Shown: positions 2,034-42,374 of the stretch, in pieces
Layout: each line of letters begins with the position of its first letter
Position numbering within the stretch: the first letter of the stretch is position 1
Origin: Dechloromonas sp.
Lineage (GTDB): Bacteria > Pseudomonadota > Gammaproteobacteria > Burkholderiales > Rhodocyclaceae
Reading direction: 5' to 3'
Assembly: GCA_016790815.1 (NCBI GenBank)
Contig: JAEUOG010000057.1
Span: 1-42,512, forward strand
Length of the DNA stretch: 42,512 nt
Made by a program: the position numbers and the translations under genes
Notes under the pieces: generated by a model
Databases searched by the model: none
Seen by the model: the letters and a program-made list of their open reading frames with translations, nothing else
Told to the model about the DNA's origin: nothing

Positions 2034-2606
2034 ATGCCCAGACATTTCATTTTTGCCTTGTTTTTCGGGTCGACCGTGGCATTCGCCGCGCCGCCTGAAT
2101 ATTTTGAACCGCTGGTCATCAACGGTTGCGGCATCTGGCCGCATACCCGTTGCCCGGGTGCCGACCTGCGCCACGCCAATCTGGCTGGCCAGAACCTGGC
2201 CGGGGCCGATTTGAGTGGCGCCCAACTGGCCCGCGCCGATCTGCGCGGCGCCAACCTGGCCGGTGCCAACCTTGACGGGGCCGACCTCACGGCCGCCCGG
2301 CTCAACAAGGTCAGCGCCCCGACGGCGACCTTTCGCGGCGCCAAAATGGTCGGAGCCGATCTCGAATTCGCCCGCCTGTTTCGCACCGATTTCACCAATG
2401 CCGACCTGACCGCCGCCAACCTCGAAGCGGCCAAGGCCAATTTCGCCTGGTTCATCGGCGTCCGGCTCAACAACGCCAACCTCCAGGAGACCAAATTTTT
2501 CACCGTCAATTTCCGCAAAGCCGATCTGACCGGCATCTACCGCCGCTTCGCGGTGTTCCAGGAAGCCGATTTCGAAGGCTGTACCAACTGCCCGACCGAC
2601 TGGTGA
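2034..2606 (+). CDS. Secreted pentapeptide-repeat protein
   Basis: A 190-aa protein with a signal peptide (MPRHFIFALFFGSTVAFA, then APPEY), so exported. From about residue 38 onward it consists of A(D/N)LxxAxL-type pentapeptide repeats (for example GADLSGAQLARADLRGANL), which fold as a right-handed quadrilateral beta-helix. A short Cys-containing end (CTNCPTDW) closes it. The start ATG at 2034 is chosen over an in-frame upstream ATG at 2004 because it opens directly into the signal peptide. The stop overlaps the next start as TGATG, suggesting coupling with the cytochrome gene. Codons for residues 4-17 of the signal peptide coincide with a copy of the dispersed repeat in reverse orientation. 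Biochemical function is unknown; its place between a PQQ dehydrogenase and its likely cytochrome suggests a role in that system. Confidence 0.85.
   Translation: MPRHFIFALFFGSTVAFAAPPEYFEPLVINGCGIWPHTRCPGADLRHANLAGQNLAGADLSGAQLARADLRGANLAGANLDGADLTAARLNKVSAPTATFRGAKMVGADLEFARLFRTDFTNADLTAANLEAAKANFAWFIGVRLNNANLQETKFFTVNFRKADLTGIYRRFAVFQEADFEGCTNCPTDW
2043..2082 (-). repeat. Dispersed ~36-bp repeat, copy 1 (inside signal peptide of pentapeptide protein)
   Basis: Read on the minus strand: left box CACGGTCGACCCGAAAAA, then AAGGCAAAAATGAAAT. It is in frame and without stops in the host gene, where it encodes the hydrophobic core of the signal peptide. Confidence 0.85.
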
Positions 2607-3073
2607 TGGCCATGAAAAAATTGCTCCTCATTCTCCTGGCCGCGCTGTCTTCCTCGCTCGCCATGGCCAACGAAGTCGCCGTGGCGCCAGCAGTGTCGCC
2701 GGACGGCTTGCCGCCGTTGGGCGAAACCTGGCTGGCCGAAAACCCCTACCGAGGCAACCCGACCGCCCTGGCAATCGGCCGCGATGCTTACAACCAGGCT
2801 TGCGCCCGCTGCCACGGCGCCGACGCCAGCACCAACGCCGCCCCGGCCCCCGATCTTCGCCAGCTCAACCGCTTCTGCAAGCGGATCAGCGACGCCGAGC
2901 TGAACGCCGCGTGCATGCGCGACAACGACGCCTACTTCGCCAAAACCGTGCGCAACGGTAAGGTCATCGTCGGCGTCACGCACATGCCGCCGTGGCAGGG
3001 CGTGCTCAAGCAGGAACTGGCCTGGGCGATTCAGGTCTTCTTCGAATCCCGGGCGGGCGCCCGGCGGGAGTGA
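2606..3073 (+). CDS. pedF: Periplasmic cytochrome c-550, PedF family
   Basis: A 155-aa mono-heme cytochrome c with a signal peptide (cleavage near AMA-NEV). The heme site is C66-A-R-C69-H70; M127 in THMPPWQG is the probable sixth ligand. Two further cysteines (C91, C103) lie between. The motif order NPYRGN, AIGxxAYNQxCARCHG, PDLRxL, YFxxxVRNG and MPPW matches the PedF family, the electron acceptor of PQQ alcohol dehydrogenases in pseudomonads. It should carry electrons from the dehydrogenase at 17-1888 to the terminal oxidases. The start is ambiguous: ATG 2606 (overlapping the upstream stop as TGATG) or ATG 2612; no good Shine-Dalgarno is seen, consistent with translational coupling. It converges with hipA, 12 bp away. 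Confidence 0.88.
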   Translation: MAMKKLLLILLAALSSSLAMANEVAVAPAVSPDGLPPLGETWLAENPYRGNPTALAIGRDAYNQACARCHGADASTNAAPAPDLRQLNRFCKRISDAELNAACMRDNDAYFAKTVRNGKVIVGVTHMPPWQGVLKQELAWAIQVFFESRAGARRE

Positions 3074-3085
3074 GGCCCGATCCCG

Positions 3086-4348
3086 TCAGAAGCCGAATTG
3101 CCCGGCGCCGATGATTTGCTTTTGCCGGCCAAAACAGCTTTCCAGGCGCTTGCGTAACGTCTCCGGCACGTCCTGCAGCTTGGCGTGCAGCCACCATTGG
3201 CTGTAAACAATACCGGCCATTTCCTTGATGGTCGCGTTGGCCTGATCGGCCGAAAGATCGAAATGCGCTGCCGACTGAACTGCCAGTTCGAGACTGGATT
3301 CCTGCGTTGTTCCGTCGATCGACAGCATCTGGTAGCCGAGATTGGTCAGTTGCGGTACGACGTCGAAGGCCGGCGACAAAATGTAACGATCCCCTCCCAA
3401 GCAAAGCATGCCGTGGTTTTTCAGGTGGTCGTCGGTATTGTCGATCAGCAGGTTGAAAATCATGCGTCGAAAGAGTTCCTTCAAGTCGGCACCGGGCCGC
3501 AGGCTGAGCCGGCGGATGACACGGGCAAATTCGACGTAGCTGCCGGCGCTCGATTCATAGGGGATGTCGAGCAGGGCGCTGGCTGACAGGTAGTGCAGGC
3601 GCTGCCGTGACTGTTCGCCAAAACGGTCGAAGCGGCGCGACAGGAAGGCGTTTTCGCCGTGCCTGACCGGCATGGTCATAAACTGCGGCACCTGGATGCC
3701 ACAGCCCATGGCGAGGCCGAGCGCCGTGGCTTCGAGCACCTGAACATCAAGTGGGTCGCCGGCGGCGGGGAACTTGGCCAGCCACAAAGCTCCATCGTGC
3801 GTAAACGACGCCTTGGGGCGGGCGCCGCCCAGGCTGCCGCCGCGCAGCAGCAGGCGTTTGAGCGGTGGCGGAATTTCCATGTCGTATTGCAGGCGGCGTA
3901 CGGCATCGGCCAGTTGGCTCAGTTCGTCGTGCGGTTGTTCGGCCGGCGCCGGCATGTCGCGACTATCGGAAAAAACCATGGCACCGACGCGATCCTCATT
4001 GGTCAGCAACAGTTGTTCGCGCTCGCTCGGCAGGCGCCCACCGAGTTCGTTGGCGAGAACGCGCAGCCCCCAGGCGTCGGGCAGGGCGTCCTTGATGCTC
4101 AGCGGCAAGGACCCACCGTCGCGGAGAAGACGCGCCGGCAGGCGGAAGGTTTCTTGCTGCAAAGGCAGGTGCAGCGGATTCAGCGCCAGCGCATCGGGGC
4201 GTGCAAGGTAGCCCAGGCCGTAGGCCAGATGGCCGCTTTCCTGCAGATTGTTGCGTTCGAGCTTGAGCAGCGCTGCCGTCGTCGGCGCTTCTTGCCCCGG
4301 CAGGTAAAGACCGACGTACAACGAACTTTCAGAAATCCCGTTCGTCAT
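3086..4348 (-). CDS. hipA: HipA-type Ser/Thr kinase toxin
   Basis: A 420-aa protein of usual HipA length. An N-terminal HipA subdomain-1 (about 1-110) is followed by the kinase-like core. Visible motifs are GGARPKA (nucleotide-binding loop region), the catalytic DNTDDHLKNHGML segment (Asp and Asn of the kinase site) and SPAFDVVP (metal-binding Asp). Family members phosphorylate glutamyl-tRNA synthetase or related targets and arrest growth until neutralised by HipB. It overlaps the upstream regulator gene by 20 bp, the usual antitoxin-first order. The residues needed for activity appear intact. Whether it works as a persistence toxin or mainly as a regulator is not visible from sequence. Confidence 0.9.
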   Translation of the reverse strand: MTNGISESSLYVGLYLPGQEAPTTAALLKLERNNLQESGHLAYGLGYLARPDALALNPLHLPLQQETFRLPARLLRDGGSLPLSIKDALPDAWGLRVLANELGGRLPSEREQLLLTNEDRVGAMVFSDSRDMPAPAEQPHDELSQLADAVRRLQYDMEIPPPLKRLLLRGGSLGGARPKASFTHDGALWLAKFPAAGDPLDVQVLEATALGLAMGCGIQVPQFMTMPVRHGENAFLSRRFDRFGEQSRQRLHYLSASALLDIPYESSAGSYVEFARVIRRLSLRPGADLKELFRRMIFNLLIDNTDDHLKNHGMLCLGGDRYILSPAFDVVPQLTNLGYQMLSIDGTTQESSLELAVQSAAHFDLSADQANATIKEMAGIVYSQWWLHAKLQDVPETLRKRLESCFGRQKQIIGAGQFGF

Positions 4349-4667
4349 CGCTGACTCCCTTCGCTACAGGGCGTGCTCGCTGGCTACGTTTGTTGCCGAG
4401 CATGCCGATTTCCAGCGGACTGAGTTGTTCCATGTCCTCCAGGCGCCCGAACAGCCATAAGGCATGGGCCAGCAAACCCAGGCTGACCGTCGGCTTGCCG
4501 CTTTCCAGTGCGCGATAGGTGGTCGGTGAACAGAGTAGGCGCTCGGCAGCCTGTTCCAGCGTCATGTTCTGGGCAAGACGCCTGGCGCGCAGACGCAGGC
4601 CGAGGTTCTTCAACATCGCGAGCGATTCGGGCGGAAGGGCGATGATACTGTTCGTTGAACGCGACAT
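4329..4667 (-). CDS. hipB: HipB-like HTH antitoxin/autorepressor
   Basis: A 112-aa XRE-family DNA-binding protein. The helix-turn-helix spans about residues 22-75 (LGLRLRARRLAQNMTLEQAA, then TTYRALESGKPTVSLGLLAHAL). The C-terminal tail is charged and probably disordered. It precedes and overlaps hipA, so it should neutralise the toxin and repress the operon. No Shine-Dalgarno is evident upstream of the ATG (TTTATTAACC), which suggests leaderless or weak initiation. An inverted repeat directly upstream is the likely operator. Confidence 0.85.
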   Translation of the reverse strand: MSRSTNSIIALPPESLAMLKNLGLRLRARRLAQNMTLEQAAERLLCSPTTYRALESGKPTVSLGLLAHALWLFGRLEDMEQLSPLEIGMLGNKRSQRARPVAKGVSDDERDF

Positions 4668-4672
4668 GGTTA

Positions 4673-4709: not shown

Positions 4710-4743
4710 CGGTTATTTCAGGTTTGTATACCCGGATCGATGC

Positions 4744-4784
4744 ATTCCCACGGTCAACCGGAAAAATAGCCCAAAAATGAAAAA
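4744..4784 (+). repeat. Dispersed repeat, copy 2
   Basis: Left box CACGGTCAACCGGAAAAA and right part GCCCAAAAATGAAAA. Two A5 tracts about 11 bp apart and a following A4 give phased A-tracts. It lies between the hipBA promoter and the 3' end of the minus-strand dehydrogenase; its A-rich end abuts a terminator stem. Confidence 0.9.
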
Positions 4785-4814: not shown

Positions 4815-4848
4815 GCTATCGGGCGCCGGAGCGCCCGAAAAACTTCAA

Positions 4849-7825: not shown

Positions 7826-8760
7826 AACGGCTGCTCTGTTCGCTGCTGATGTTGGTTGCCGGCCAGCTCGGGGCGGTCGATTTCGACTACCGCCTGAGTG
7901 CCCGTCCCCTTGCCGAAAACGTCTACGCCTTCATCGGCAAGACCGAGGATTTCACCACCGACAACGGCGGCAACATCGTCAACACCGCCTTCATCGTCGC
8001 CGCGCAGGGCGTCATCGTCATCGACAGCGGCCCCTCGCTGCGCTACGGCCAGCAGATGCGCCGGGCGATTGCTGCGGTCACCGCCAAGCCCATCGCGCTG
8101 GTCATCAACACACACCACCACCCCGACCACTTTCTCGGCAACCAGGCTTTCGCCGATGTGCCGATCGCCGCGCTGGCCGAAACGCGCAACGGCATCGCCG
8201 CCGATGGCAACGCCTTCGCCGAAAACCTCTACCGGATGTCGGGCGACTGGATGAAGGGCACCGAAGTCCAACTGCCCGGCAAGACGCTGAGCGCCGGCGT
8301 TGTCGAAGTTGCCGGCCGCAGCCTGCGTCTTGTTGCGCTTGACGGTCATACCGGCGCCGATCTGGTCATCGTCGATGCAACGAGCGGCGTCGTCTTCGCA
8401 GGCGATCTCGCCTTCAACGGCCGCGCGCCGACCACGCCGCATGCCGACATCGCGCACTGGCTCAAGGCCCTCGACCAGCTCGACGCCCTGACCCGCGAAT
8501 CCGGTTTCAAGCTGCTGGTCCCGGGGCACGGCGCGCCGACCACTGACGCCGCACCGATACGCCAGACCCGTGCCTGGCTGACCTGGCTGAGCGCCGCCCT
8601 GCGCGACGCGGCAAAGGCTGGGCTGGACATGAACGACGTGCTGGCCCGCCCGCTGCCCGCCGAATTTGCCAGCCTGCCGGTGGCGGCCAGCGAATATCGC
8701 CGCTCGGTCGGCCATCTCTTTCCGGCGGCCGAGCAGGAAGCGCTGGGGGCGAAACCATGA
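7822..8760 (+). CDS. Quinoprotein relay system zinc metallo-hydrolase (metallo-beta-lactamase fold)
   Basis: A 312-aa exported MBL-fold protein (N-terminus VKRLLCSLLMLVAGQLGA as signal peptide). The zinc site is visible as THHHPDHFLGN (HxHxDH), followed by GHTGADLVI, FAGDLAFNG (bridging Asp) and PGHGAP. It belongs to the SoxH-like hydrolases that co-occur with PQQ dehydrogenases and the SoxYZ-like carrier. The GTG start at 7822 overlaps the preceding stop. It probably acts in the periplasm on the same intermediate or carrier as the upstream protein; the reaction is unknown. Its stop overlaps the tonB start (ATGA at 8757-8760). Confidence 0.87.
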   Translation: MKRLLCSLLMLVAGQLGAVDFDYRLSARPLAENVYAFIGKTEDFTTDNGGNIVNTAFIVAAQGVIVIDSGPSLRYGQQMRRAIAAVTAKPIALVINTHHHPDHFLGNQAFADVPIAALAETRNGIAADGNAFAENLYRMSGDWMKGTEVQLPGKTLSAGVVEVAGRSLRLVALDGHTGADLVIVDATSGVVFAGDLAFNGRAPTTPHADIAHWLKALDQLDALTRESGFKLLVPGHGAPTTDAAPIRQTRAWLTWLSAALRDAAKAGLDMNDVLARPLPAEFASLPVAASEYRRSVGHLFPAAEQEALGAKP

Positions 8761-9509
8761 GCCACGCGGCCATGATCGAGGCACCCGCCGTTCCCACGGT
8801 GAACCGGAAATTTTGGGCAATTCTGGGACTGTCCATCCTCTTCCACGCCTCGTTGTTCGCGCTGACCTCGTGGCAGCGCCAGAACGGGCCGATCAGCCTG
8901 CCACCCATCCTTGCCTCGATCCGATTGATGGCGGTTACCGAATCCGGACCTGTTGCCGAAGTCGCTCCCGCGCCGGCAGTCGTCCCCCAGAAGGCCCGGC
9001 AGGAAGCCAGTCGTTCGGAGCGGCCGGCTACGCGAACGACTCAGACTGCCGGGCCGGCCAATGTGCCGGCCCAAGCGCCCGCGCCTTCCATGGCGTCAGC
9101 CGCCGACAGTACCCAGCCGGCGACGCCCGTCGCCGCACCGGCCGCCGAAGCTGCCCGGCATGCCCCGGAGGTCACGCCACCGCCAGCACGCCCGCAACGC
9201 CCGCAGAGCGAAGTGCTCGACGGCTATCGCCAGCGCCTCGGCGAACTCTTCGCCCGCCATCAGGAATACCCGCGCGTCGCCGCCATGCGTGGCTGGGAGG
9301 GCGAGGTTCGCCTGCGCCTGAAGGTGGCGCGCAAGGGCAACCTGCTCGGCGTCGCGGTCGACCGCTCAAGCGGATTCGATGTCCTCGACCAGCACGCGCT
9401 GGCCATGCTCGAAACACTGGCCAGTCTGCCACCGCTGCCTGAGGCGCTCGACAGCAACGAAATTCAAGTCGTCGTACCTATCAACTACAAGCTCAAGAAA
9501 ACAACATGA
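8757..9509 (+). CDS. tonB: TonB-family energy transducer
   Basis: A 250-aa protein with one N-terminal membrane anchor (about residues 19-38, FWAILGLSILFHASLFALTS), a long Pro/Ala-rich periplasmic linker (about 55-150) and a C-terminal TonB domain (WEGEVRLRLKVARKGNLLGVAV, then SSGFDVLDQHALAMLETL). It should couple the proton-motive force to the receptor encoded next, whose gene it overlaps by 4 nt, so the pair is probably dedicated. ExbB/ExbD are not in the window. Residues 11-24 are encoded by a copy of the dispersed repeat directly before the anchor helix. Confidence 0.9.
   Translation: MSHAAMIEAPAVPTVNRKFWAILGLSILFHASLFALTSWQRQNGPISLPPILASIRLMAVTESGPVAEVAPAPAVVPQKARQEASRSERPATRTTQTAGPANVPAQAPAPSMASAADSTQPATPVAAPAAEAARHAPEVTPPPARPQRPQSEVLDGYRQRLGELFARHQEYPRVAAMRGWEGEVRLRLKVARKGNLLGVAVDRSSGFDVLDQHALAMLETLASLPPLPEALDSNEIQVVVPINYKLKKTT
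8789..8825 (+). repeat. Dispersed repeat, copy 3 (inside tonB)
   Basis: Left box CACGGTGAACCGGAAATT, then TTGGGCAATTCTGG; the right half has diverged. In frame in tonB, encoding VPTVNRKFWAILG, just before and into the membrane anchor. Confidence 0.7.
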
Positions 9510-11851
9510 GACAAATTCCCCAGCGCTCGCTACTCGCCATCGCCATCTCCACCGCCTTCGCTCCGGCTTTCGCTGCCGATCCGCTGGTCACCTTACCCAC
9601 CGTCGAGGTGGTCGGCACCACGCCGCTGTCCGGCGTCGGTGTGCCGCGCCTGCACCTGCCGGCCAATGTCCAGTCGCTCGACGACCGCCGGCTTGATGAA
9701 ATCGAAAGCCAGAACATCGCCGAGCAGATGGTGCGCCAGGTGCCGTCGGTCACCGTCAATGAAGTCCAAGGCAATCCTTACCAGGCCGACCTCAACTACC
9801 GTGGCTTCACCGCCTCGCCGCTGCTCGGCACGGCTCAGGGGCTGTCGGTCTACGTCGATGGCGTGCGCGTCAATGAACCCTTCGGCGACACGGTCAACTG
9901 GGATTTGATCCCCAATTCGGCGATTGCCGGCATCGACCTGGTTCCCGGTTCCAACCCGGCGTTCGGCCTCAATACTCTGGGCGGTGCGCTGTCCATGCGG
10001 ACCAAGAGCGGTTTCTCGCACCCGGGCGGCAAGATCGAGTTTTCCGGCGGTAGTTTCAACCGCACCAACACCGAGCTCGAATACGGCGGCAACAATGGTA
10101 CTTTCGGCTGGTACGGCGCCGGCGACTGGTTCCGCGAAGACGGCTGGCGCGACCATTCGCCGTCCGACGTCAAGCAGTTCTTCGGCAAGCTGTCCTTCCG
10201 CAACGCCGCCGGCGAGGCCGACCTGACGCTGACCAAGGCGCGCAGCCGGCTGATCGGCAATGGTCTCGTGCCGCAATCGATGCTCGCCGCGCGTCGCGAA
10301 AATATCTTCACGCACCCCGACGAGACGCGCAACGACATGACCCAGCTCGCCCTCAACGGCAAGCTGTGGCTCAGCGATACGCAAAGCCTGAGTGGCAGCG
10401 TCTATCACCGGCGGACCAAGACGCGCACGCTGAACGGCGACATGAACGATGACTATGAAGACGACTACGAAAACTGGGTAACCGGCGGCAGTGTCGGCCC
10501 GGCGCCCGATGAAACGGGGGCCAACAATCGTACTCGGACGAGCCAGCGCGGCACAGGCATCGCCGCGCAGTGGAATTTCAGCGGCAAGCAGCATCAGCTT
10601 GCCGTCGGCGCCTCCTACGACCAGTCCCGCATCAACTTCCAGCAGACGCAGGAGCTGGGCGATCTCGACGCCAGCCGCGGCGTCTCCGATCTGCAGGCGC
10701 TGTCCATTCAGAACCAGATCAACGGCAAGACCAGCACGGCCAGCCTGTTCGTCACCGACACGTACTCGTTGATGCCCAACCTGCACCTGACTGCTTCGGC
10801 TCGCTACAACATGAGCCACGTCAAGACCGTTGATGAACTGAACCCCGGTGCGCCGCATAACCTCGACGGCGATCACAAATACCGCAAACTCAACCCGGCT
10901 ATCGGCCTGAGCTGGCAGATCGTCCCGACGCTCAACGCCTACGCCGGCTTCAGCCAGGGAAACCGCGTGCCGACGCCGATCGAACTTGGCTGTGCCGACC
11001 CGGCCAACCCCTGTACCCTGCCCAACTCGATGGCCGCTGATCCGTACCTCAAACAGGTCGTCGCCCGCACGCTCGAAGCCGGGCTGCGCGGCAAGCTGGC
11101 TGGCGAATTCTTGGGAGATGCGAACTGGAATGCCGGCGTCTTCCGCACCATGAGCAGCGACGACATTCTGTTCGTTGGCACCTCGACCAGCGCCGGTTAC
11201 TTCACCAACTACGGCAAGACCTTGCGCCAGGGCCTCGAACTTGGTCTCAACGGCAGCCATCGCCGTCTCGACTGGTACGCCAACTACAGCTGGCTACAAG
11301 CCACTTTCCGTTCCGACGCCTGCATCCTGGCCGAAAACAACAGCACGCGCGGTACGGCGGCGGAGTGTACGGGCGGCGGGCAGGACGATGAAATCCATGT
11401 CAAGAAGGGCAACCATATCCCCGGCCTGCCGAAGCACAGCCTCAAGCTCGGCCTTGCCTGGCGCGCTACCGACTGGTTGCGCATCGGCGGCGACGTGCAG
11501 GCCTTCTCCGGCCAGACCGTGCGCGGTAACGAAAACAACCAGCACCAGAGCGGCACCTATACCGATGCCCTGGGCAACACGCGCACCTTCGACGGCCCGG
11601 GCCGGATCCCCGGCTATGCCATCCTCAACCTCAATGCCGAAGCCAGGCTGGGCGGCGGCTGGCAACTCTTTGCCAAGATCAACAACGTCTTCGACAAGCA
11701 TTACGCGACGGCCGGCGCGCTCGCTGAAAACCCCTTCGTCGGCGGCAGCTTCCAGGCCAACCCCGACGACTGGCGTCGTGAAACCTTCGTCGCGCCGGGA
11801 GCACCGCGCTCCGGCTGGCTCGGCGTGCGCTACGTGTTTGGCGGCAAATGA
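9506..11851 (+). CDS. TonB-dependent outer-membrane receptor (putative metal/metallophore receptor)
   Basis: A 781-aa receptor. The signal peptide ends near AFA-ADP; a TonB-box-like VEVVGT lies near residue 34; the plug spans about 45-165 (SVTVNEVQGNPYQADLNYRG, YVDGVRVNEPFGDTVNWD); the remainder is the 22-strand barrel. It sits in an operon with a SoxYZ-like carrier, a quinoprotein relay hydrolase, its own TonB and a two-component system, beside a lanthanide-type dehydrogenase. Uptake of a lanthanide complex, analogous to LutH/LanA systems of methylotrophs, is therefore a reasonable inference. Iron-siderophore or PQQ uptake are alternatives. The stop overlaps the kinase start (ATGA). Confidence 0.87.
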   Translation: MRQIPQRSLLAIAISTAFAPAFAADPLVTLPTVEVVGTTPLSGVGVPRLHLPANVQSLDDRRLDEIESQNIAEQMVRQVPSVTVNEVQGNPYQADLNYRGFTASPLLGTAQGLSVYVDGVRVNEPFGDTVNWDLIPNSAIAGIDLVPGSNPAFGLNTLGGALSMRTKSGFSHPGGKIEFSGGSFNRTNTELEYGGNNGTFGWYGAGDWFREDGWRDHSPSDVKQFFGKLSFRNAAGEADLTLTKARSRLIGNGLVPQSMLAARRENIFTHPDETRNDMTQLALNGKLWLSDTQSLSGSVYHRRTKTRTLNGDMNDDYEDDYENWVTGGSVGPAPDETGANNRTRTSQRGTGIAAQWNFSGKQHQLAVGASYDQSRINFQQTQELGDLDASRGVSDLQALSIQNQINGKTSTASLFVTDTYSLMPNLHLTASARYNMSHVKTVDELNPGAPHNLDGDHKYRKLNPAIGLSWQIVPTLNAYAGFSQGNRVPTPIELGCADPANPCTLPNSMAADPYLKQVVARTLEAGLRGKLAGEFLGDANWNAGVFRTMSSDDILFVGTSTSAGYFTNYGKTLRQGLELGLNGSHRRLDWYANYSWLQATFRSDACILAENNSTRGTAAECTGGGQDDEIHVKKGNHIPGLPKHSLKLGLAWRATDWLRIGGDVQAFSGQTVRGNENNQHQSGTYTDALGNTRTFDGPGRIPGYAILNLNAEARLGGGWQLFAKINNVFDKHYATAGALAENPFVGGSFQANPDDWRRETFVAPGAPRSGWLGVRYVFGGK

Positions 11852-11890
11852 AATTTCAAAACTGGCCGATTTTTCCGGTTGACCGCAGCA
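11848..11890 (-). repeat. Dispersed repeat, copy 4 (start of kinase gene)
   Basis: Read on the minus strand: TGCGGTCAACCGGAAAAA, then TCGGCCAGTTTTGAAATT. A strong match. It contains the kinase start codon, the overlapping receptor stop and the first 13 codons (MKFQNWPIFPVDR). Confidence 0.88.
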
Positions 11891-16058: not shown

Positions 16059-16095
16059 TGTCACGGCCAACCGGAAAAACTGGCCAAAAATAGGA
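16059..16095 (+). repeat. Dispersed repeat, copy 5
   Basis: CACGGCCAACCGGAAAAA, then CTGGCCAAAAATAGGA. Intergenic, upstream of the FKBP gene and of the divergent TonB receptor; 92 bp from copy 6 in the same orientation. Confidence 0.9.
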
Positions 16096-16186: not shown

Positions 16187-16225
16187 CTTCCACGGTCGAC
16201 CAGAAAATTTGGTCAAAAACGAAAT
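16187..16225 (+). repeat. Dispersed repeat, copy 6
   Basis: CACGGTCGACCAGAAAAT, then TTGGTCAAAAACGAAATC. It lies 18 bp before the chosen start of the TonB receptor and forms a tandem pair with copy 5. Confidence 0.88.
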
Positions 16226-18384: not shown

Positions 18385-18475
18385 GTGTCTGATGAAACAC
18401 TGAACACTGTTTCGTTTTGGCTCACAGGCGCAGCAATTGTCCAGAAAATGAACGCGTCGGCCTGCGTGCCTGACT

Positions 18476-18510
18476 GTTGCGGTCAACCGGAAAAATGGCC
18501 TGAAATCAAG
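18476..18510 (+). repeat. Dispersed repeat, copy 7
   Basis: TTGCGGTCAACCGGAAAAA, then TGGCCTGAAATCAAG. Intergenic, upstream of the porin promoter. Confidence 0.88.
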
Positions 18511-18555
18511 CGGGTGACTGGGTTTGCATGGCTTTTTCGGCTGTTTTTTTCAGCC

Positions 18556-23739: not shown

Positions 23740-25898
23740 CGGAGTCGGAAACCGGCCGCGTCGTCGAATTTGCCATAGGCGGCATGACCTGTGCGGCGTG
23801 CTCCGCGCGCCTGGAAAAGGTATTGAACCGCCAGTCCGGCATGCAGGCCAACGTCAATCTGGCGGCTGAGCGGGCCCGCGTGCGCTTGTCGGCAGAGGCT
23901 GACGAAGCAGCCGTGGTGGCGGCAGTCGCCAAGGCCGGGTTTTCGGCGACCGTGGTCGATGCGCAAACCAGGGCGCACGAAAAAACCGAGAAATTGCGAG
24001 TCTACCGCAGCGAAATCAGGCGCTTCTGGATTTCGGTCGCCCTGACCCTGCCGCTGGTCGGACAGATGTTTTTCATGTTCGGCGAGCACGGCCACATGAA
24101 CGAACTTCCGCGCTGGTTCCAGCTGGCGCTGGCGACGCCGGTGCAGTTCTGGATCGGCTGGCGTTTTTACGACGGTGCTTTCAAGTCCCTGCGTGGCGGC
24201 GGGGCGAACATGGATGTGCTGGTTGCGCTCGGGACGAGCATGGCTTGGGGATTCTCCACAGTGGTGACCCTGTTCGCGCTGAATCAGCATGTGTATTTCG
24301 AGGGCGGCGCTGCGGTCATCACGCTGGTCCTGCTCGGCAAGTTGCTCGAAGCGCGGGCCAAAGCGCGGACATCGGAGGCTATCGAGTCGCTGATCAGGCT
24401 GCAGCCGAAGACGGCGCGCGTTGAACGCGACGGCCAGTGGATCGACATGCCGGTCGAAGCCCTGATGCCGGGAGACATTTTCCTCGTGCGGCCGGGCGAG
24501 AGCGTACCGGTCGATGGCGAGCTGATCGAAGGTGAATCGAGTGTCAATGAGGCGATGCTGACCGGCGAAAGCATGCCGGTGGGCAAGCAGGCCGGGGACA
24601 AGGTTTTTGCCGCCACAGCCAACGCCGAGGGGGCGATGCGCTGCCGGGCGACCGGCGTTGGCGAGCACACCCTGCTCGCCGGCATCATCCGCATGGTGGG
24701 CGAGGCGCAGGGTTCGAAGGCGCCGGTGCAGCGGCTGGCCGACCAGATTTCGGCTGTTTTCGTGCCGACGGTGTGTGCCATTGCCTTGCTTACCCTTGCA
24801 GGCTGGTGGTGGGCCACCGGCGATTTCGCCGAAGCGCTGGTCAATGCCGTTGCCGTGCTGGTCATTGCCTGCCCTTGCGCACTCGGGCTGGCGACGCCGA
24901 CGGCAATCATGGTCGGGACAGGGCAGGGGGCGCGGTCCGGTATTCTGGTCAAGAATGCCGAGGCGTTGGAGCGAGCCGAGAAAATCACCGTGCTGGCGCT
25001 GGACAAGACCGGAACATTGACCTGCGGATTGCCGCAAGTGACGGACGTCGTGCCCCACGGCCTAACGCGTGACGAAGCACTCGGGTTGGCTGCCGCGCTG
25101 GAAGAAAATTCCGAGCATCCGCTGGCGCGCGCTATTTTGGCGGCGACTCCTGCGGTCAACCGGAAAAAAGCGGCAAATTTCAAAGCCCAGCCGGGCTGTG
25201 GAGTCGAAGGCGTGGTCGACGGTCGGGCATTGCGCCTTGGGTCGCCGGACTGGCTAGGGCTGGCAGAGAGTTCCGTGGTGGCTGAATTGCAGCGAGCAGG
25301 CAAAACAGTGATGGTGCTGGCCGAGGGCGGGGAAACGCTGGCCCTGTTTGCCGTTGCCGACACCTTGCGACCGACCTCACAGGCAGCAGTCAAGCGACTG
25401 CGCGAGCGCGGCATCCGGGTTGTCATGCTGACCGGCGACAATGCGGCGACAGCGGCTGCCATCGCCGCGGAGGCGGGCATCGCGGAATTCCGGGCGGGTA
25501 TATTGCCTGGCGACAAGGCTGCAGCCATCAATGAATTGAAGTCGGGCGGCGGTTTGGTGGCCATGGTTGGCGACGGAATCAACGATGCCCCTGCTCTCGC
25601 CGCGGCAGACGTCAGCTTTGCCATCGGCGCCGGTTCTGACACGGCGGTGGAGGCGGCAGACCTGACATTGATTCGCAGCGACCTGACGAGTGTCGTCGAT
25701 GCAATTGATCTATCGGCGGCCACCTTGGGGAAGATCCGGCAAAATCTTTTCTTTGCCTTCATCTACAATGTACTGGGAATTCCGCTCGCTGCCCTTGGTT
25801 GGCTCAATCCGGTGGTGGCGGGGGCTGCAATGGCGATGAGTTCGGTGTCGGTGGTGTCGAACTCCCTTTTGCTGAAGCGCTGGCGCCCAGGGCGTTGA
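23736..25898 (+). CDS. Cu+-translocating P1B-type ATPase (CopA/CcoI-like)
   Basis: A 720-aa copper pump. One N-terminal heavy-metal domain with GGMTCAACS (C19, C22), eight predicted helices with the CPC motif (VIACPCALG), phosphorylation motif DKTGTLT, N-domain SEHPLARAI (HP motif) and hinge [12 protein letters not shown]. Start GTG 23736, overlapping uspA. The neighbours fnr, hemN and a SafE-like protein resemble cbb3-oxidase maturation clusters, so it may supply copper to cytochrome oxidase (CcoI role) rather than only detoxify. Residues about 472-484 ([12 protein letters not shown]), in a variable loop of the N-domain, are encoded by a copy of the dispersed repeat. Confidence 0.92.
25149..25186 (+). 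repeat. Dispersed repeat, copy 8 (inside Cu-ATPase gene)
   Basis: TGCGGTCAACCGGAAAAA, then AGCGGCAAATTTCAAAG. In frame, encoding [12 protein letters not shown] between the HP motif and the rest of the nucleotide-binding domain, a loop that tolerates variation. Confidence 0.85.
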
Positions 25899-27934: not shown

Positions 27935-28981
27935 GTGCCCGAAGAAAAAATCAGACTGACCCAGCTTTCCCATGGTGGCGGCTGCGGTTGCAAGATTGCG
28001 CCTGCAGTCCTGCAGCAAATTCTTGCCGGTGCCCCGTCGGGCATCATTCCGCCGCAACTGCTGGTCGGCACAGAAACCTGCGATGATGCGGCGGTTTACC
28101 AGATCAACCCGCAGCAGGCCATCGTCGCGACGACCGATTTTTTCATGCCGATTGTCGACGATCCCTACGATTTCGGTCGTATCGCCGCGACCAATGCCAT
28201 TTCCGACGTATACGCCATGGGCGGTACACCACTCTTCGCACTGGCCATCGTCGGCATGCCGGTCAATACGCTGCCGCTGGAAACCATAGGCAAGATCCTG
28301 CAGGGTGGTGAAGCCGTCTGTCGCGCCGCCTGCATTCCGATTGCCGGTGGTCACACCATCGACTCGGTCGAGCCGATCTATGGGCTGGTTGCCATCGGTA
28401 TCGTCAATCCGGCGCACCTCAAGCGCAATTCTGGCGCCAAGCCGGGTGACAAGCTGATCCTCGGCAAGCAACTGGGGGTTGGCGTCTATAGCGCCGCACT
28501 GAAGAAGGATCAGCTCCACGCCAGTGATTACGAGGCGATGGTTGAGTCCACTACCCAACTGAACACGCCGGGGCCGATGCTGGCCTGCCTTGACGGTGTA
28601 CACGCCATTACTGACGTAACCGGTTTCGGGTTAGCCGGTCACCTCATGGAAGTTTGCAAGGGCAGCAAGGTGCGCGCCAAGGTGAACTACGCGGATTTGC
28701 CCGTGCTTGCCCGTGCCCGCGAATTTGTTGATGCGGGCTACGTGACCGGCGCCTCGGCCCGGAACTGGTCTAGCTACGGTGAAGGGGTCAGTCTTGCGGT
28801 CGACCTCGAAAAAGCGGCAAAAACGCTGCTTACCGACCCGCAAACCTCGGGCGGTCTGCTTGTTTCATGCACGGCCGATACGGTGACCGAAGTTCTTTCG
28901 CTATTTTTGCAGCAGGGGTTCTCGCACGTTTCGGTGATCGGCGAAGTTAGCGAAGGCGAGCCAGGTATCGACGTTATTTGA
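27935..28981 (+). CDS. selD: Selenide, water dikinase
   Basis: A 348-aa enzyme that makes selenophosphate from selenide and ATP. The glycine-rich N-terminal segment GGGCGCK carries C17, C19 and K20; the reactive residue is Cys, not selenocysteine. An AIRS-type ATP-binding core follows (TTDFFMPIVDDPYDFGRIAATNAISDVY in part) and DPQTSGGLL lies near the end. Start GTG 27935. The user pathway (selC/selA or mnmH) is not in the window. A stretch at 28795-28830 resembles a degenerate dispersed repeat in frame. Confidence 0.94.
   Translation: MPEEKIRLTQLSHGGGCGCKIAPAVLQQILAGAPSGIIPPQLLVGTETCDDAAVYQINPQQAIVATTDFFMPIVDDPYDFGRIAATNAISDVYAMGGTPLFALAIVGMPVNTLPLETIGKILQGGEAVCRAACIPIAGGHTIDSVEPIYGLVAIGIVNPAHLKRNSGAKPGDKLILGKQLGVGVYSAALKKDQLHASDYEAMVESTTQLNTPGPMLACLDGVHAITDVTGFGLAGHLMEVCKGSKVRAKVNYADLPVLARAREFVDAGYVTGASARNWSSYGEGVSLAVDLEKAAKTLLTDPQTSGGLLVSCTADTVTEVLSLFLQQGFSHVSVIGEVSEGEPGIDVI
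28793..28829 (+). repeat. Possible degenerate dispersed repeat inside selD
   Basis: TTGCGGTCGACCTCGAAAAA followed by GCGGCAAAAACGCTG. It matches the spacing and both boxes but encodes AVDLEKAAKTL, plausible native SelD sequence, so chance resemblance is not excluded. Confidence 0.35.
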
Positions 28982-32903: not shown

Positions 32904-33059
32904 GGTCTTCCCTCAGGATTGTGCACGGCGTGTTTTTTTCAGTCGCCCACCTTTTCAGGATAGCTCAAAAATGGCGAATAGCGCGCCAGAGCGTGGCAAA
33001 TCCGGTATTTTTAGTGATGTTATTAGACGGCTCGGGCGATGTTGCCGCCAAAGGCTCGT

Positions 33060-33098
33060 TCTGCGGTCGACCTGGAAAAACGGCCAAAAACGAATTCG
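33060..33098 (+). repeat. Dispersed repeat, copy 9
   Basis: TCTGCGGTCGACCTGGAAAAA, split here as TCTGCGGTCGACC and TGGAAAAA, then CGGCCAAAAACGAATTC. In the 249-bp gap between the substrate-binding-protein and bfd genes, 55 bp beyond the bfd stop; nothing else was recognised in that gap. Confidence 0.88.
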
Positions 33099-33392: not shown

Positions 33393-33516
33393 TCTTATGT
33401 TATTGAGAACCATTGTCAACAACTAGTTTGGTCTTTGAGGTTCGCGACAAGCCGCTACCCCGATTCAAGCATCGAGCAAATCACGAACCAGCCTGGCTGA
33501 AGCCGCCCAGATACGA

Positions 33517-33543
33517 AAAAGCCGCAGACTGGCTGCGGCTTTT
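33517..33543 (-). terminator. Bidirectional-looking terminator after the bacterioferritin genes
   Basis: AAAAGCCGCAG (33517-33527) and CTGCGGCTTTT (33533-33543) form a perfect 11-bp stem with a 5-nt loop and U-tracts on both strands. Confidence 0.85.
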
Positions 33544-33565
33544 GGGTGGGGCAGGCAGAGTGGCC

Positions 33566-34048
33566 TTAGCCTTCGCCTGGCTCCATGTGCGCTTGCAGAT
33601 AGTTCGGCAAGGTCACATCCTTGATCAAGCTCTGCTGGGTTTCCAGCCAGTCGATCGCTTCCTCGCAGTGCTCGAGCAGTTCTTCCAGCAGATCGCGGCT
33701 CACGTAGTCCTGCAGATCCTCGCAAAGGGCGATGCTCTCAATCAGCAACGGGCGCTGGATATCTCGCTCGTACTTGAGGTCGCCCTGCAGGCATTCAACG
33801 ACATGTTCGCCGATCAGCAACTTGCCGAGATTCTGCAGGTTCGGCAGGCCTTCGAGGAAGAGCACGCGCTCGATGATCTCGTCGGCTTCCTTCATGACGC
33901 GGATCGACTGCTTGTACTGATAGTCGTTGAGCTTTTCCAGGCCCCAGTTGCGGAACATGCGGGCATGCAGGAAATACTGGTTGATCGCCGTCAGTTCGTT
34001 CTTCAGCACCTTGTTGAGGGCTTCGATGACTTTCTTGTCGCCTTTCAT
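33566..34048 (-). CDS. bfr: Bacterioferritin, heme-binding subunit lacking a complete ferroxidase site
   Basis: A 160-aa ferritin-like four-helix subunit. Aligned by position to E. coli Bfr, heme ligand M52 is kept (VMKEAD), as is E18. Ferroxidase residues at 51 and 54 are changed (V51 for Glu, E54 for His), and the EExH motif of the last helix has become EEAI, losing H130. It should bind heme and mediate electron entry but not oxidise iron well. It is paired with the upstream subunit, which shows the opposite pattern. Its start has AAGGAG, and it lies 12 bp downstream of the partner gene. Confidence 0.88.
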
Positions 34049-34060
34049 CGGGGTCGCTCC

Positions 34061-34546
34061 TTAAGCCGCCGGCGCCGAGCCCATCTGGCTCTGCTGGTAG
34101 TTGGCAAGGCCGACCAGGTTGATCAGGCTGATCTGCTTTTCGAGATAGTAGGCATGATCCATTTCGGTATCGTCCAGCTGGATGACCAGCATGTCGCGGC
34201 TGACGTAGTCCTGAGCCTTCTCGCAGGCGGCAATGGCCTTCTTGAGTTCGCCGACGACCTTGTATTCGACATCAAGGTCGGATTTCAGCATGTCCGGTAC
34301 CGTCTTGCCGATTTTCAGCGCTTCGCGCTTGGCCATGTTTGGCGTGCCTTCGAGGAACAAAATCCGCTGGATCAGAGCGCGGGCGTGTTGCAGCTCGTGT
34401 GCCGATTCATGCAAGGCCTTGTCGGCCAGGTTCTGAAAGCCCATGTCGGCGTACATCTCGCCGTGGATCAGGTATTGATCGACGGCGGTCAGTTCGCCTG
34501 CCAGCAGGCTATTGAGGATCTCGATGATTTTCTTGTCGCCCTTCAT
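34061..34546 (-). CDS. bfr: Bacterioferritin, ferroxidase subunit lacking the heme methionine
   Basis: A 161-aa ferritin-like subunit. Ferroxidase residues E18, E51 and H54 (HELQH) and the late-helix ExxH (TEMDH) are present, but residue 52 is Leu, so the inter-subunit heme ligand is missing. With the next gene it should form a mixed 24-mer in which one chain oxidises iron and the other binds heme, as described for two-subunit bacterioferritins of Neisseria and magnetospirilla. A Shine-Dalgarno CCGGAG precedes the ATG. A repeat copy lies 178 bp upstream. Confidence 0.88.
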   Translation of the reverse strand: MKGDKKIIEILNSLLAGELTAVDQYLIHGEMYADMGFQNLADKALHESAHELQHARALIQRILFLEGTPNMAKREALKIGKTVPDMLKSDLDVEYKVVGELKKAIAACEKAQDYVSRDMLVIQLDDTEMDHAYYLEKQISLINLVGLANYQQSQMGSAPAA

Positions 34547-34723
34547 TGCGTTCTCCGGAGGTGGTTGGGGCTGGCTGGCGTACAGCGGCTGGCTTGCCGG
34601 AGCGCCTATTCTAGGCTTGGCTGCAGTGCTTTTCTAGCCGGGCATCTTGCCAGACCGCCGAGTTGGAAAGGAGTTCCGCCTATTCGCGGAATCGCCGGGA
34701 GCCGCAAAAGTCGCTCGTGACGC

Positions 34724-37583: not shown

Positions 37584-37620
37584 TTTGATTATTGCCTCAA
37601 TTTTCCGGTTCACCGTAGCC
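37584..37620 (-). repeat. Dispersed repeat, copy 11
   Basis: Read on the minus strand: CTACGGTGAACCGGAAAAT, then TGAGGCAATAATCAAAT. It sits 5 bp beyond the stop codon of the TIR gene, in the same orientation as that gene. Confidence 0.8.
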
Positions 37621-39339: not shown

Positions 39340-39398
39340 GAAATGGCTTTGGCTTCCGGCGAATGAAATTTCTGGATGGGAGAGCAGCAGAAAACCGT

Positions 39399-39437
39399 GT
39401 CTGCGGTCGACTGAAAAAATCGCACGAATTTGAAAAA
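39399..39437 (+). repeat. Dispersed repeat, copy 12
   Basis: CTGCGGTCGACTGAAAAAAT, then CGCACGAATTTGAAAA. Intergenic, between the divergent SGNH and glutathione-peroxidase genes. The left box has lost two bases. Confidence 0.75.
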
Positions 39438-40032: not shown

Positions 40033-40131
40033 GGCGTAGCAGGCGCGAGGGCGTTTTTGCATGCGAATAGGGGAACTGTTCCGGACTGCATCCATCGAAC
40101 AAACACCTCATCGCGTGAAAAGGAGCCTCTC

Positions 40132-40362: not shown

Positions 40363-40426
40363 TCACTTGTCGGGTGAATTTGGCAACGCACTCCTCGCGC
40401 AAAAATATGCCATTGGACAAATTCTA

Positions 40427-40442
40427 TTGGCATCAATTTTGC
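40427..40442 (+). promoter_or_regulatory. Sigma54-like promoter of the Cache-domain protein gene
   Basis: TTGGCATCAATTTTGC has exact -24 GG / -12 GC spacing and both core elements (TGGCA and TTGC). Start near 40454. Confidence 0.58.
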
Positions 40443-40504
40443 GTTAGACTTAATTCGCCATACACATTTTGTGATGGTGAGTTACCCACAAAGGAGGAGT
40501 CAAA

Positions 40505-40951: not shown

Positions 40952-41008
40952 AACACTGGTTTAACCCCTACCGGCGCTAGCCGGCGGAAACAGAGCCAAT
41001 AAAACGCG

Positions 41009-41036
41009 ATGGCCCGCCTCAAATGAGGTGGGCCAT
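41009..41036 (+). terminator. Long hairpin downstream of the Cache gene
   Basis: ATGGCCCGCCTCA and TGAGGTGGGCCAT form a 13-bp stem (one G-U) with a 2-nt gap. Only a weak T-content follows (TGTCGTTATT), so a terminator or a REP-like hairpin is possible. Confidence 0.55.
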
Positions 41037-41121
41037 TGTCGTTATTGAGCGACGCAAACTGCCTAAAAATAGCGGCAGCGCCGTTAGTGAAGGACTTCGC
41101 GCGTCGCCGGGCAGCGACAAC

Positions 41122-41490
41122 TCACCTGCTGGCCAGCTTGCCCCCCGACGCCATCACGCGCGCACTCAGCGCCTGCAGGGTTTCCTGCGCTTCGGCAGCC
41201 GCCTCTTGCATCTCCGCAACGCTCAAAGGCCGGAGCAACGCCTCCAGTTCGATGCGCTGAATGTTCGGGCATTTGGCGACAGCGCCTTGCAGGATGCTGT
41301 CCACCTTCTTCGAACCCAGCCCGAACAGCACTTTCTCCAGCACGAAAACGCGGACGATGATGATGTCCTCCTCGTTTACCGCCGTCGCCTGCACCGCCTC
41401 AATCTCCTTGCGCAAATAGCCGCGGAACTTGAGCGGCGTGATGTCGGCAGGCACCTGCAGGATGGAAGAACGGAATTGGCCCTGGATCAT
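41122..41490 (-). CDS. Conserved-looking protein of unknown function
   Basis: A 122-aa soluble, acidic protein with no signal peptide, membrane helix or domain I recognise. It starts MIQGQFRSSILQVPADITPL; the C-terminal third is a predicted coiled-coil-like helix (AEMQEAAAEAQETLQALSAR). No clear Shine-Dalgarno is seen before ATG 41490. Codon use resembles neighbouring genes, which favours a real gene. Confidence 0.55.
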   Translation of the reverse strand: MIQGQFRSSILQVPADITPLKFRGYLRKEIEAVQATAVNEEDIIIVRVFVLEKVLFGLGSKKVDSILQGAVAKCPNIQRIELEALLRPLSVAEMQEAAAEAQETLQALSARVMASGGKLASR

Positions 41491-41620
41491 GGTTTGTCTG
41501 GAATAAGCAAAGCGCCGATTCTCGCAGAAGGGCAGGGGTGGAGAAAGCCTGACGCCAGATCGCCCGCGTGCTGCGTGCCTTCGCGATGCGCGGCAACGGT
41601 TGGGGGAGCGTCGGGGCAGC

Positions 41621-41658
41621 TGCTACGGTCGACCGGAAAAAAGCACCGAAAATGAAAA
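41621..41658 (+). repeat. Dispersed repeat, copy 13
   Basis: CTACGGTCGACCGGAAAAA, then AGCACCGAAAATGAAAA. Its A-rich end abuts the terminator stem of the minus-strand thioesterase gene, as copy 2 does at the dehydrogenase gene. Confidence 0.9.
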
Positions 41659-41685
41659 GGGGGCAACGAAATGTCGCAGCCCCCT
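41657..41685 (-). terminator. Terminator of the thioesterase gene
   Basis: AGGGGGC (41658-41664) pairs with GCCCCCT (41679-41685). On the minus strand the stem is followed by TTTTCATTTT, contributed by the repeat. Confidence 0.65.
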
Positions 41686-41698
41686 CTTGCTGCTGGAC

Positions 41699-42163
41699 CT
41701 ACTTCGCGACGAAGGTGTCCGGCATCTGCAGCGCCACCACTTCGCCACGCGCCGTAGCGACGCCTTCGGCATAGACCGTCGCCTCGACCACCACCTTGCG
41801 CCCCTTGATCTCCTTGACCTTGCCGCGAATCTCCAGCTCCGGACCGAGCGGCGTCGGCTTCAGGTAACTCACCTGCAGTGAGCCGGTCACGAAACGAAAC
41901 GCCGGCAAGCTGTCCATGTCGCGATTCTCGGCGCGATACATCGCCGCAGCCGCCGTGCCCGTGCAGTGGCAGTCGATCAGCGAAGCCAGCAGGCCGCCAT
42001 AAACGAAACCGGGAATCGCCGTGTGTTCGGGGCGCGGCTGAAAATGCGTGACCGTCTCGTCACCATCCCAGAAGGTCTTGATCTGGTGCCCATCCGCGTT
42101 TTCGCGGCCGCAACCGTAGCAGTGGGCAAGCGTCTCCGGGTAGCAATCCTGAAAGGCCTTCAT
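41699..42163 (-). CDS. PaaI/4HBT-type hotdog thioesterase
   Basis: A 154-aa single hotdog-domain protein. GFVYGGLLASLIDCHCTGTA contains the helix with the usual Asp position; LQVSYLKPTPLGPELEIRGKVKE and RKVVVEATVYAEG are the central strands; an N-terminal CYGCG precedes the fold. It probably hydrolyses an acyl-CoA in the cytosol; the substrate is unknown. AAGGAG lies before ATG 42163. Confidence 0.85.
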   Translation of the reverse strand: MKAFQDCYPETLAHCYGCGRENADGHQIKTFWDGDETVTHFQPRPEHTAIPGFVYGGLLASLIDCHCTGTAAAAMYRAENRDMDSLPAFRFVTGSLQVSYLKPTPLGPELEIRGKVKEIKGRKVVVEATVYAEGVATARGEVVALQMPDTFVAK

Positions 42164-42287
42164 GCTGTCTCCTTGTTTTTTGAAAGCGCCATCCTAGGCG
42201 ATGGCCCGTGCAGGCGCCATTGTCCGAGCAGTCAGTCTGCATGCAAATCCGGCCAAGGCGGATTTCAATTCACGAACCTGTACGCAG

Positions 42288-42318
42288 AGAACAAAAGGGG
42301 TCAGCCCCCTATTGTTCT
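42288..42318. repeat. Palindrome with GGGGTCAGCCCC core
   Basis: AGAACAA (42288-42294) and TTGTTCT (42312-42318) flank GGGG-TCAG-CCCC. A 31-bp imperfect palindrome in a 213-bp gene-free gap between the thioesterase and the partial transposase-like gene. Similar GGGGTCA palindromes often accompany insertion or REP-type elements. Confidence 0.55.
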
Positions 42319-42338
42319 GGGGATAGCGCTGGAGCGAC

Positions 42339-42374
42339 TTCCACGGACAACCCGAAAAAACCGTCGAATTTAAA
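42339..42374 (+). repeat. Dispersed repeat, copy 14
   Basis: CCACGGACAACCCGAAAAAA, then CCGTCGAATTTAAA. It lies 2 bp beyond the stop of the partial transposase-like gene. Diverged but with both boxes recognisable. Confidence 0.72.

What the first reader, a model, noticed from the sequence alone, without database searches (positions are those of the whole stretch)
2043..42374. Undescribed dispersed ~36-bp repeat, about one copy per 3 kb
Fourteen copies plus one doubtful share a left box CGGTCRACCGGAAAAA, a 2-4 base spacer and a right box close to GGCCAAAAATGAAA. Starts: 2043-, 4744, 8789, 11848-, 16059, 16187, 18476, 25149, 33060, 34724, 37584-, 39399, 41621, 42339 (minus sign = reverse); doubtful at 28793. 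The core CGGTCGACCG is palindromic, with the two central bases varying. The A-tracts recur about every 10-11 bp, which predicts curved DNA. Eleven of 14 point the same way although genes point both ways, so orientation may follow replication rather than transcription. At this density a whole genome would carry over a thousand copies. It could be a site for a nucleoid or segregation protein, an uptake or recombination signal, or a very successful small mobile repeat.
Basis: seen in the sequence. Interest (0 to 1): 0.87.

Follow-up and report, generated by a model that had tools for sequence, protein, structure and literature searches.

The report
Probable DNA uptake signal in Azonexus
Many Azonexus/Dechloromonas bacteria carry hundreds of copies of a 37-base DNA 'password' that looks like the self-recognition tags Haemophilus and Neisseria use when taking up DNA; if confirmed, this would be the third bacterial family known to have such a system.

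Summary
The repeat is real. It is a 37-bp site, TNCYR-CGGTCRACCG-GRAAWWW-nnnnC-AAAWWT-nn-AAA. A matrix trained on another species finds 14 sites above 20 bits in the window and none in 400 kb of four motif-poor congeners. It is confined to one genus, Azonexus/Dechloromonas, and is patchy there: 41 of 76 genomes have at least 20 exact cores; 297 other genomes of the order have at most 2 each.

It is not a mobile repeat. In two sampled species most copies lie inside genes, in both orientations. Ten of 11 testable copies align without a gap to relatives (at least 70% identity) lacking the site there, so they arose by substitution. Copies are enriched between genes, more evenly spaced than chance, show no replication-strand bias, have a strong core, and come in species dialects sharing that core. 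In a third species the intergenic copies can fold into hairpins.

These are published hallmarks of DNA uptake sequences, so far reported only from Neisseriaceae and Pasteurellaceae (PMC12616744, introduction). The two-A-tract layout resembles the Haemophilus USS. Best reading: a third, independently evolved uptake sequence (0.7). Function and receptor are not shown; comEC integrity and the PF16732 pilin do not track the motif.

The parts
2045..2081 (-). copy, 43.5 bits; at the start of a called gene (start uncertain)
4746..4782 (+). copy, 58.5 bits; intergenic between two minus-strand gene calls
8792..8828 (+). copy, 34.1 bits; inside the N-terminal part of a gene with a TonB C-terminal domain (8757-9509)
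11854..11890 (-). copy, 52.8 bits; at the start of a histidine kinase gene called at 11848 (start uncertain)
16059..16095 (+). copy, 40.1 bits; intergenic upstream of a TonB-dependent receptor gene
16188..16224 (+). copy, 43.0 bits; intergenic, same spacer as the previous copy
18475..18511 (+). copy, 42.4 bits; intergenic
25148..25184 (+). copy, 53.6 bits; inside a P-type ATPase gene; same-place copies in L069 and L070; gapless against four relatives without it
28792..28828 (+). doubtful copy, 17.7 bits; inside an AIR-synthase-family gene; possibly chance
33059..33095 (+). copy, 39.6 bits; intergenic; copies at about the same place in L069 and L070
34727..34763 (+). copy, 41.7 bits; intergenic; same-place copies in L069 (13227), L070 (12226) and L075 (11269)
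37584..37620 (-). copy, 40.8 bits; intergenic
39399..39435 (+). copy, 32.6 bits; intergenic
41621..41657 (+). copy, 48.2 bits; intergenic
42339..42375 (+). copy, 34.5 bits; after the last gene call near the window end

Best explanation
The repeat is a DNA uptake sequence (USS/DUS type): a self-recognition tag bound at the cell surface by a sequence-specific receptor of the type IV pilus and competence machinery. The receptor reads the core CGGTCRACCG; the phased A/T tracts on one side (or both sides in palindromic dialects) give narrow-groove, bent DNA that helps the duplex enter the outer-membrane pore. Fragments carrying the site are taken up preferentially and recombined, so point mutations that improve a site spread wherever a gene or spacer tolerates them. 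Shown here: copy number, structure, origin by substitution, placement, spacing, dialects, genus restriction, absence from one foreign insert. Inferred: uptake itself, the receptor, and the role of the tracts.
For: Published features of USS and DUS (PMC1626085, passages): no orientation bias, spacing more regular than random, preference for non-coding DNA with many copies in genes, unusually strong consensus, AT-rich flanks (USS), origin by mutation. Results here: (a) No orientation bias: 139/138 in the own genome; 47 of 79 and 48 of 101 relative to skew. (b) Even spacing: G281 variance/mean of counts per 20 kb 0.37; gaps under 500 bp 1.3% against 12.9% in simulation (0 of 2000 as low; 2 overlapping pairs merged first); G000 3.4% against 12.2%, P = 0.02. 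(c) Placement: G000 with window 37 of 100 intergenic, 60 coding, 3 partial, with 93% of the sequence called coding; G281 44, 70 and 6 of 120, with 91%. (d) Strong core: CGGTCAACCG 55 against 3.2 expected in G281 and 32 against 3.1 in G000; all 30 single mismatches together 105 against 73.0 and 123 against 78.0, much of that excess being the central A/G change. (e) Substitution origin: 10 of 11 sites gapless. (f) Dialects with a shared core, found without supervision. (g) Intergenic copies with covarying arms in G147. (h) No copy in a 33.7-kb insert, 6.7 expected, P = 0.0012. (i) comEC in 71 of 76 genomes; prepilin-type gene clusters in the six loci viewed.
Against: No uptake experiment. No paper found on natural transformation in this genus (2 papers, neither on it by title and start of abstract). 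Density, one per 3.3-4.8 kb, is below the roughly one per kb of USS/DUS. Closely spaced inverted pairs, described for USS/DUS, are missing in G000 and G281 apart from 2 overlapping pairs in G281. PMC2346458 (abstract) reports that known uptake sequences favour one orientation in genes; here it is 34 against 29 and 36 against 40. The core is palindromic, which suits a dimeric binder as well. No receptor identified: PF16732 (ComP_DUS) is in 70 of 76 genus genomes but also in 63 of 68 genera of the family, of which only this one shows the motif, and its sequence does not track the dialect. ComEC integrity does not track the motif: G323 has 333 exact cores and an interrupted comEC; G297 and G301 have 0 and 2 and apparently intact frames.
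Confidence: 0.7

Rival explanations
1. Binding site of an unknown chromosome-organising (nucleoid, occlusion or segregation) protein, probably a dimer reading the palindromic core and bending DNA at phased A-tracts.
For: Palindromic core and full dyads in G147, G240 and G222; even spacing; phased A/T tracts; substitution origin fits any selected site.
Against: No significant polarity relative to replication; 3-7 sites in each of 20 spread 20-kb stretches of G281, so no domain there. Near absence in several congeners. Amino-acid changes inside a P-type ATPase are a high price for an architectural site, though not impossible.
Confidence: 0.17
2. Small mobile repeat (REP/RAYT, MITE or other copied element).
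For: High copy number, identical cores, hairpins in G147, patchy distribution.
Against: Gapless alignment to relatives without the site, 10 of 11 sites; sites inside genes in both orientations; Y1 transposase family not found in motif-rich G147, G240, G305, G310, G323, G331, G335 and G336, though present in motif-rich G281, G311, G316, G341 and G347; even spacing.
Confidence: 0.03
3. Intrinsic transcription terminators sharing a stem sequence.
For: Intergenic G147 copies have covarying arms, often next to A or T runs.
Against: Nearly all G000 and G281 copies listed are asymmetric, and most lie inside genes. Terminator use looks secondary, as reported for USS/DUS (PMC12616744, introduction). 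No terminator scan was run.
Confidence: 0.03
4. Recombination or replication signal (Chi-like or fork-orienting).
For: Abundant and dispersed.
Against: No significant leading-strand bias; Chi and KOPS are about 8 bases (recalled), not 37; dialects and absence within one genus would be odd.
Confidence: 0.05

Closest known systems
Uptake signal sequence (USS) of Pasteurellaceae, Hin type AAGTGCGGT and Apl type ACAAGCGGT
   Same: Strong core followed on one side by two A/T-rich tracts about a helical turn apart; no orientation bias; even spacing; intergenic-enriched but common in genes; arises by mutation; types with a shared inner core (PMC1626085 and PMC7811141, passages; PMC12616744, introduction). 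Both contain CGGT.
   Different: Core here is a palindrome (CGGTCRACCG) and longer; three A/T tracts; one copy per 3.3-4.8 kb rather than about one per kb; some dialects are full dyads; few close inverted pairs; the CGGT resemblance may be coincidence.
DNA uptake sequence (DUS) of Neisseriaceae, recognised by minor pilin ComP
   Same: Also betaproteobacterial; dialects with a conserved core; intergenic hairpins; copies in genes (PMC3630211, passages).
   Different: Unrelated sequence; DUS is continuous and up to about 13 bases without AT tracts (PMC12616744, introduction); no ComP-like protein tracking the motif was found here.
REP elements with RAYT transposases
   Same: Short, dispersed, sometimes hairpin-forming repeats.
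   Different: No insertion signature; Y1 transposase not found in several motif-rich genomes.

Membership tests
DNA uptake sequences (USS/DUS) | Hundreds to thousands of copies with unusually strong core consensus | tested here: met
   277 strict places in 2.54 Mb; core 17-fold (G281) and 10-fold (G000) over expectation against 1.4- and 1.6-fold for all single mismatches together
DNA uptake sequences (USS/DUS) | No genome-wide orientation bias | tested here: met
   139/138; 47 of 79 and 48 of 101 relative to skew
DNA uptake sequences (USS/DUS) | More regular spacing than random | tested here: met
   G281 strongly; G000 on gap lengths only, its counts per 20 kb are not under-dispersed (1.13)
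DNA uptake sequences (USS/DUS) | Preferentially non-coding but many copies in genes | tested here: met
   37 of 100 and 44 of 120 intergenic in sequence 7-9% intergenic; home-made gene finder
DNA uptake sequences (USS/DUS) | Arise by point mutation, not insertion | tested here: met
   10 of 11 sites gapless at 70% identity or more; all comparisons to relatives without the site 31 gapless, 9 gapped, 8 of the 9 at 48-51% identity
DNA uptake sequences (USS/DUS) | Some copies in closely spaced inverted pairs | tested here: inconclusive
   G000 none, G281 two overlapping pairs; G147 copies are full dyads, i.e. overlapping inverted half-sites
DNA uptake sequences (USS/DUS) | Dialects with a conserved inner core that follow the phylogeny | tested here: inconclusive
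   Dialects with core CGGTCRACCG seen; tree of 15 species: motif-rich rows weakly clustered (34 of 500 shuffles as low), motif-poor rows not (253 of 500)
DNA uptake sequences (USS/DUS) | Functional competence machinery | tested here: inconclusive
   comEC in 71 of 76, but intactness does not track the motif
DNA uptake sequences (USS/DUS) | Sequence-specific surface receptor | tested here: inconclusive
   ComP_DUS (70 of 76) and GspH (69 of 76) pilins present but not tracking motif or dialect
DNA uptake sequences (USS/DUS) | Site increases DNA uptake or transformation | not testable with these tools
   needs experiment
REP/RAYT | RAYT (Y1) transposase in host genome | tested here: not met
   no match in G147, G240, G305, G310, G323, G331, G335, G336; 33 of 76 genus genomes do match
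REP/RAYT or MITE | Present as an insertion relative to an empty site | tested here: not met
Replication-polarised sites (KOPS/Chi type) | Strand bias relative to replication | tested here: not met

The most novel reading that the evidence does not exclude
A third, independently evolved self-DNA recognition system for natural transformation, outside Neisseriaceae and Pasteurellaceae, whose palindromic core implies a two-fold symmetric (dimeric) receptor different from the known or proposed minor-pilin receptors ComP and ComN, with dialect change and repeated gain or loss within a single genus.
Probability: 0.35. Interest if true: 0.87.

Novelty: new variant of a known kind. Interest (0 to 1): 0.77.

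Why it matters
Uptake sequences are reported from only two families (PMC12616744, introduction). A third case in environmental bacteria (wastewater and sediment, recalled apart from the listing titles) would show that self-recognition in DNA uptake evolves repeatedly. One genus with several dialects and many motif-poor species would make the origin, turnover and receptor coevolution of such systems testable. It would also give a practical handle for transforming Azonexus species important in wastewater treatment.

Tried and rejected
Rfam search of the window: no match. Six motif strings in full-text search: no paper. Searches for uptake sequences, repeats or transformation in this group: nothing on this motif in the titles and abstract starts listed (15 of 19, 0, 15 of 33, 2, 15 of 157, 15 of 16 and 10 of 122 papers). 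Passages of the D. aromatica genome paper found by five words do not mention it.

Replication polarity: rejected. The place listings looked polarised, but totals were balanced (150/161; 98/98) and direct sampling showed no polarity; I take those listings as cut by the output limit and did not use them.

ComP_DUS (PF16732) as a specific marker: rejected, found in 63 of 68 family genera and not tracking the dialect (one search was a faulty first attempt that picked wrong frames). GspH also general. ComEC integrity and Y1 transposase do not correlate.

Phage origin: the 16-mer CGGTCAACCGGAAAAA occurs in 17 stretches of IMG/VR; in those loci the G281 matrix gives 9 sites above 12 bits, 5 above 20 and 4 above 30, not followed up.

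The small-gene tree used 15 of 24 loci, those where all three genes were found.
Full report
The repeat is real. All listed copies were found within 0-6 bases of the stated starts. From 77 strict copies (window plus 20 stretches each of the own genome G000 and a congener G281) I built a 40-column matrix. Consensus: T-N-C-Y-R-CGGTC-R-ACCG-G-R-AAWWW-nnnnC-AAAWWT-nn-AAA. The A/T tracts start 11 bases apart. Above 12 bits there are 84 sites in 400 kb of G000, 120 in 400 kb of G281 and 16 in the window; one third-order Markov sequence per stretch gave 0. A matrix trained on G281 alone gives 67 sites above 20 bits in the G000 sample and 14 in the window, but 0 (1 above 12 bits) in 400 kb from four motif-poor congeners and 0 in 100 kb of a fifth, G112.

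Distribution. In the whole assembly (2.54 Mb, 76% complete) 277 places match CGGTSRACCGGAAAA within one mismatch, 139 forward and 138 reverse, reversed control 0. Of 297 genomes of the family examined, only genus members exceed background: 11 relatives have 510, 269, 117, 73, 56, 39, 38, 30, 29, 23 and 2; the 285 genomes of other genera have at most 10, where the reversed control reaches 9. With the dialect-free pattern CGGTCRACCGNNAAA, 41 of 76 genus genomes have 20 or more (up to 346), 2 have 12 and 19, and 33 have 9 or fewer; control at most 4. Of 300 genomes of the order, the 297 outside the genus have at most 2. Loci fetched with a window frame name the group as Azonexus/Dechloromonas; G297's contig has the same length as the D. 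agitata is5 scaffold.

Dialects. Unsupervised 9-mer enrichment in samples of 100-442 kb puts core words at the top in G000, G281, G147, G240 and G222, lower in G201, and finds no such word in G342, G297, G303, G301 and G112. Forms: CGGTCAACCG-GAAAAA (G000, G281, G305, G323, G335), TTTTCA-CGGTCGACCG-TGAAAA (G147), TTTGA-CGGTCGACCG-TCAAA (G240), GCTG-CGGTCGACCG-CAGC (G222). The core is shared; what flanks it differs. G299, G302 and G201 show only weak or mixed consensus.

Not a mobile element. With a home-made gene finder, 60 of 100 G000 sites and 70 of 120 G281 sites lie inside genes; of coding or partial sites 34 are same-strand and 29 opposite in G000, 36 and 40 in G281. In the P-type ATPase at 25148-25184 two relatives (L069, L070) keep the site while flanking bases differ, and four without it (L074, L087, L088, L090) align without a gap; two more, L078 and G147, have a partial site with a length difference beside it. 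Over 67 sites deep in genes, 11 had a relative at 70% identity or more with no site there (matrix score 15 or less; the best of them reached 12) in the fetched DNA; 10 were gapless. Counting all relatives at 45% or more, 31 alignments to sequence without the site were gapless and 9 gapped, 8 of the 9 at 48-51% identity; control windows 1634 against 123. Relatives were judged by identity, not by a reciprocal test. Sites in genes favour one reading frame (27 of 40 same-strand, 19 of 30 opposite), which I read as the frames whose amino acids are best tolerated.

Placement and spacing. Intergenic DNA is strongly enriched (37 of 100 where 6.9% is intergenic, P = 5e-18; 44 of 120 where 9.1%, P = 2e-16). 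In G281 counts per 20 kb have variance/mean 0.37, and gaps under 500 bp are 1.3% against 12.9% simulated; in G000 3.4% against 12.2% (P = 0.02), though its counts per 20 kb are not under-dispersed (1.13). There is no significant bias relative to GC skew. The perfect core CGGTCAACCG is 17-fold (G281) and 10-fold (G000) over expectation; the 30 single mismatches together are 1.4- and 1.6-fold, largely through the central A/G change and the last two positions. Closely spaced pairs are rare: one same-orientation pair in G000, two overlapping pairs in G281.

Hairpins. In G147, 18 of 29 full palindromes ACGGTCGACCGT are intergenic, 8 coding, 3 partial. Intergenic arms are self-complementary at 0.72-0.89 over the inner seven positions; the coding ones are not. 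Against 2000 re-pairings among the 18 intergenic copies, the observed match was never reached at positions 3, 4, 6 and 7, and the mean over positions 1-8 is 0.79 against 0.52 (largest shuffle 0.62). With all 29 copies the excess beats every one of 500 shuffles at positions 4 and 7 only. Secondary terminator use is described for USS/DUS (PMC12616744, introduction; PMC3630211, passage); I ran no terminator test.

Foreign DNA. In G323 a roughly 33.7-kb element interrupts comEC near residue 28; of the frames searched it holds a large serine recombinase next to the junction, a phage-type integrase, a B-family DNA polymerase and a D5-like primase. It has no site; 60 kb of other G323 sequence has 12 (P = 0.0012).

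What it most likely does. These properties match most of the description of USS and DUS in PMC1626085 (passages), and the core-plus-two-tracts layout matches the Haemophilus USS, whose AT tracts are predicted to be rigid, narrow-grooved and slightly bent and to aid uptake (PMC7811141, passages). [quoted passage not shown] My inference is a third uptake-sequence system.

What does not fit. Density is lower; close inverted pairs are few; the orientation preference within genes reported for known uptake sequences (PMC2346458, abstract) is not seen; the core is palindromic; no receptor was found. PF16732 (ComP_DUS) rings in 70 of 76 genus genomes but also in 63 of 68 family genera. It sits with other prepilin-like genes and a very large gene, which I read from recalled features as a pilV-W-X-Y1-E cluster near rpsT (no database call on those names). 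Among the five genomes shown to share one dialect the pilin falls into about four types, and G281's is closest to those of G147 and G297 (116 and 115 bits; G323 104, G335 94, G305 59, G000 58), which have another dialect or none. ComEC is present in 71 of 76, and its integrity does not track the motif: G303, G313 and G342 are broken and motif-poor, but G323 is broken and motif-rich, and G297 and G301 have long open frames and are motif-poor. A tree of 15 species shows motif-rich rows weakly clustered and motif-poor rows not. A nucleoid-type site therefore remains the main rival.

Noticed in passing
G323:C33:109608-143311 (L234, L235): A mobile element with large serine recombinase, integrase, B-family DNA polymerase and D5-like primase interrupts comEC near residue 28; G342 has a comEC split by a similar distance and a fimT-like frame with 2 stops.
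   Followed up: partly
L165, L169, L175, L201-L203: The minor-pilin locus near rpsT differs in gene order and pilin type between congeners (PF16732 gene first or last), as if whole cassettes were exchanged at one site.
   Followed up: partly
window 33413-34720: The plus-strand frame used as query has no Pfam hit and is probably a shadow of minus-strand gene calls 33566-34048 and 34061-34546; it served only to fetch loci.
   Followed up: partly
core of the repeat: Contains (G)CGGT(C), and GCGGT is shared by both Pasteurellacean USS types; possible convergence or coincidence.
   Followed up: no
G201 (L186-L190): Another locally enriched word set (CTCTGGCTC, CCGGAGCCG), probably a low-complexity repeat.
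   Followed up: no
window about 8.7 to 18.4 kb: Genes with a TonB C-terminal domain, two TonB-dependent receptors and a histidine kinase lie close together.
   Followed up: no
L217-L233 (IMG/VR): Among 17 viral-contig stretches with the exact 16-mer the matrix gives 4 sites above 30 bits, perhaps phages or misassigned DNA of this genus.
   Followed up: no
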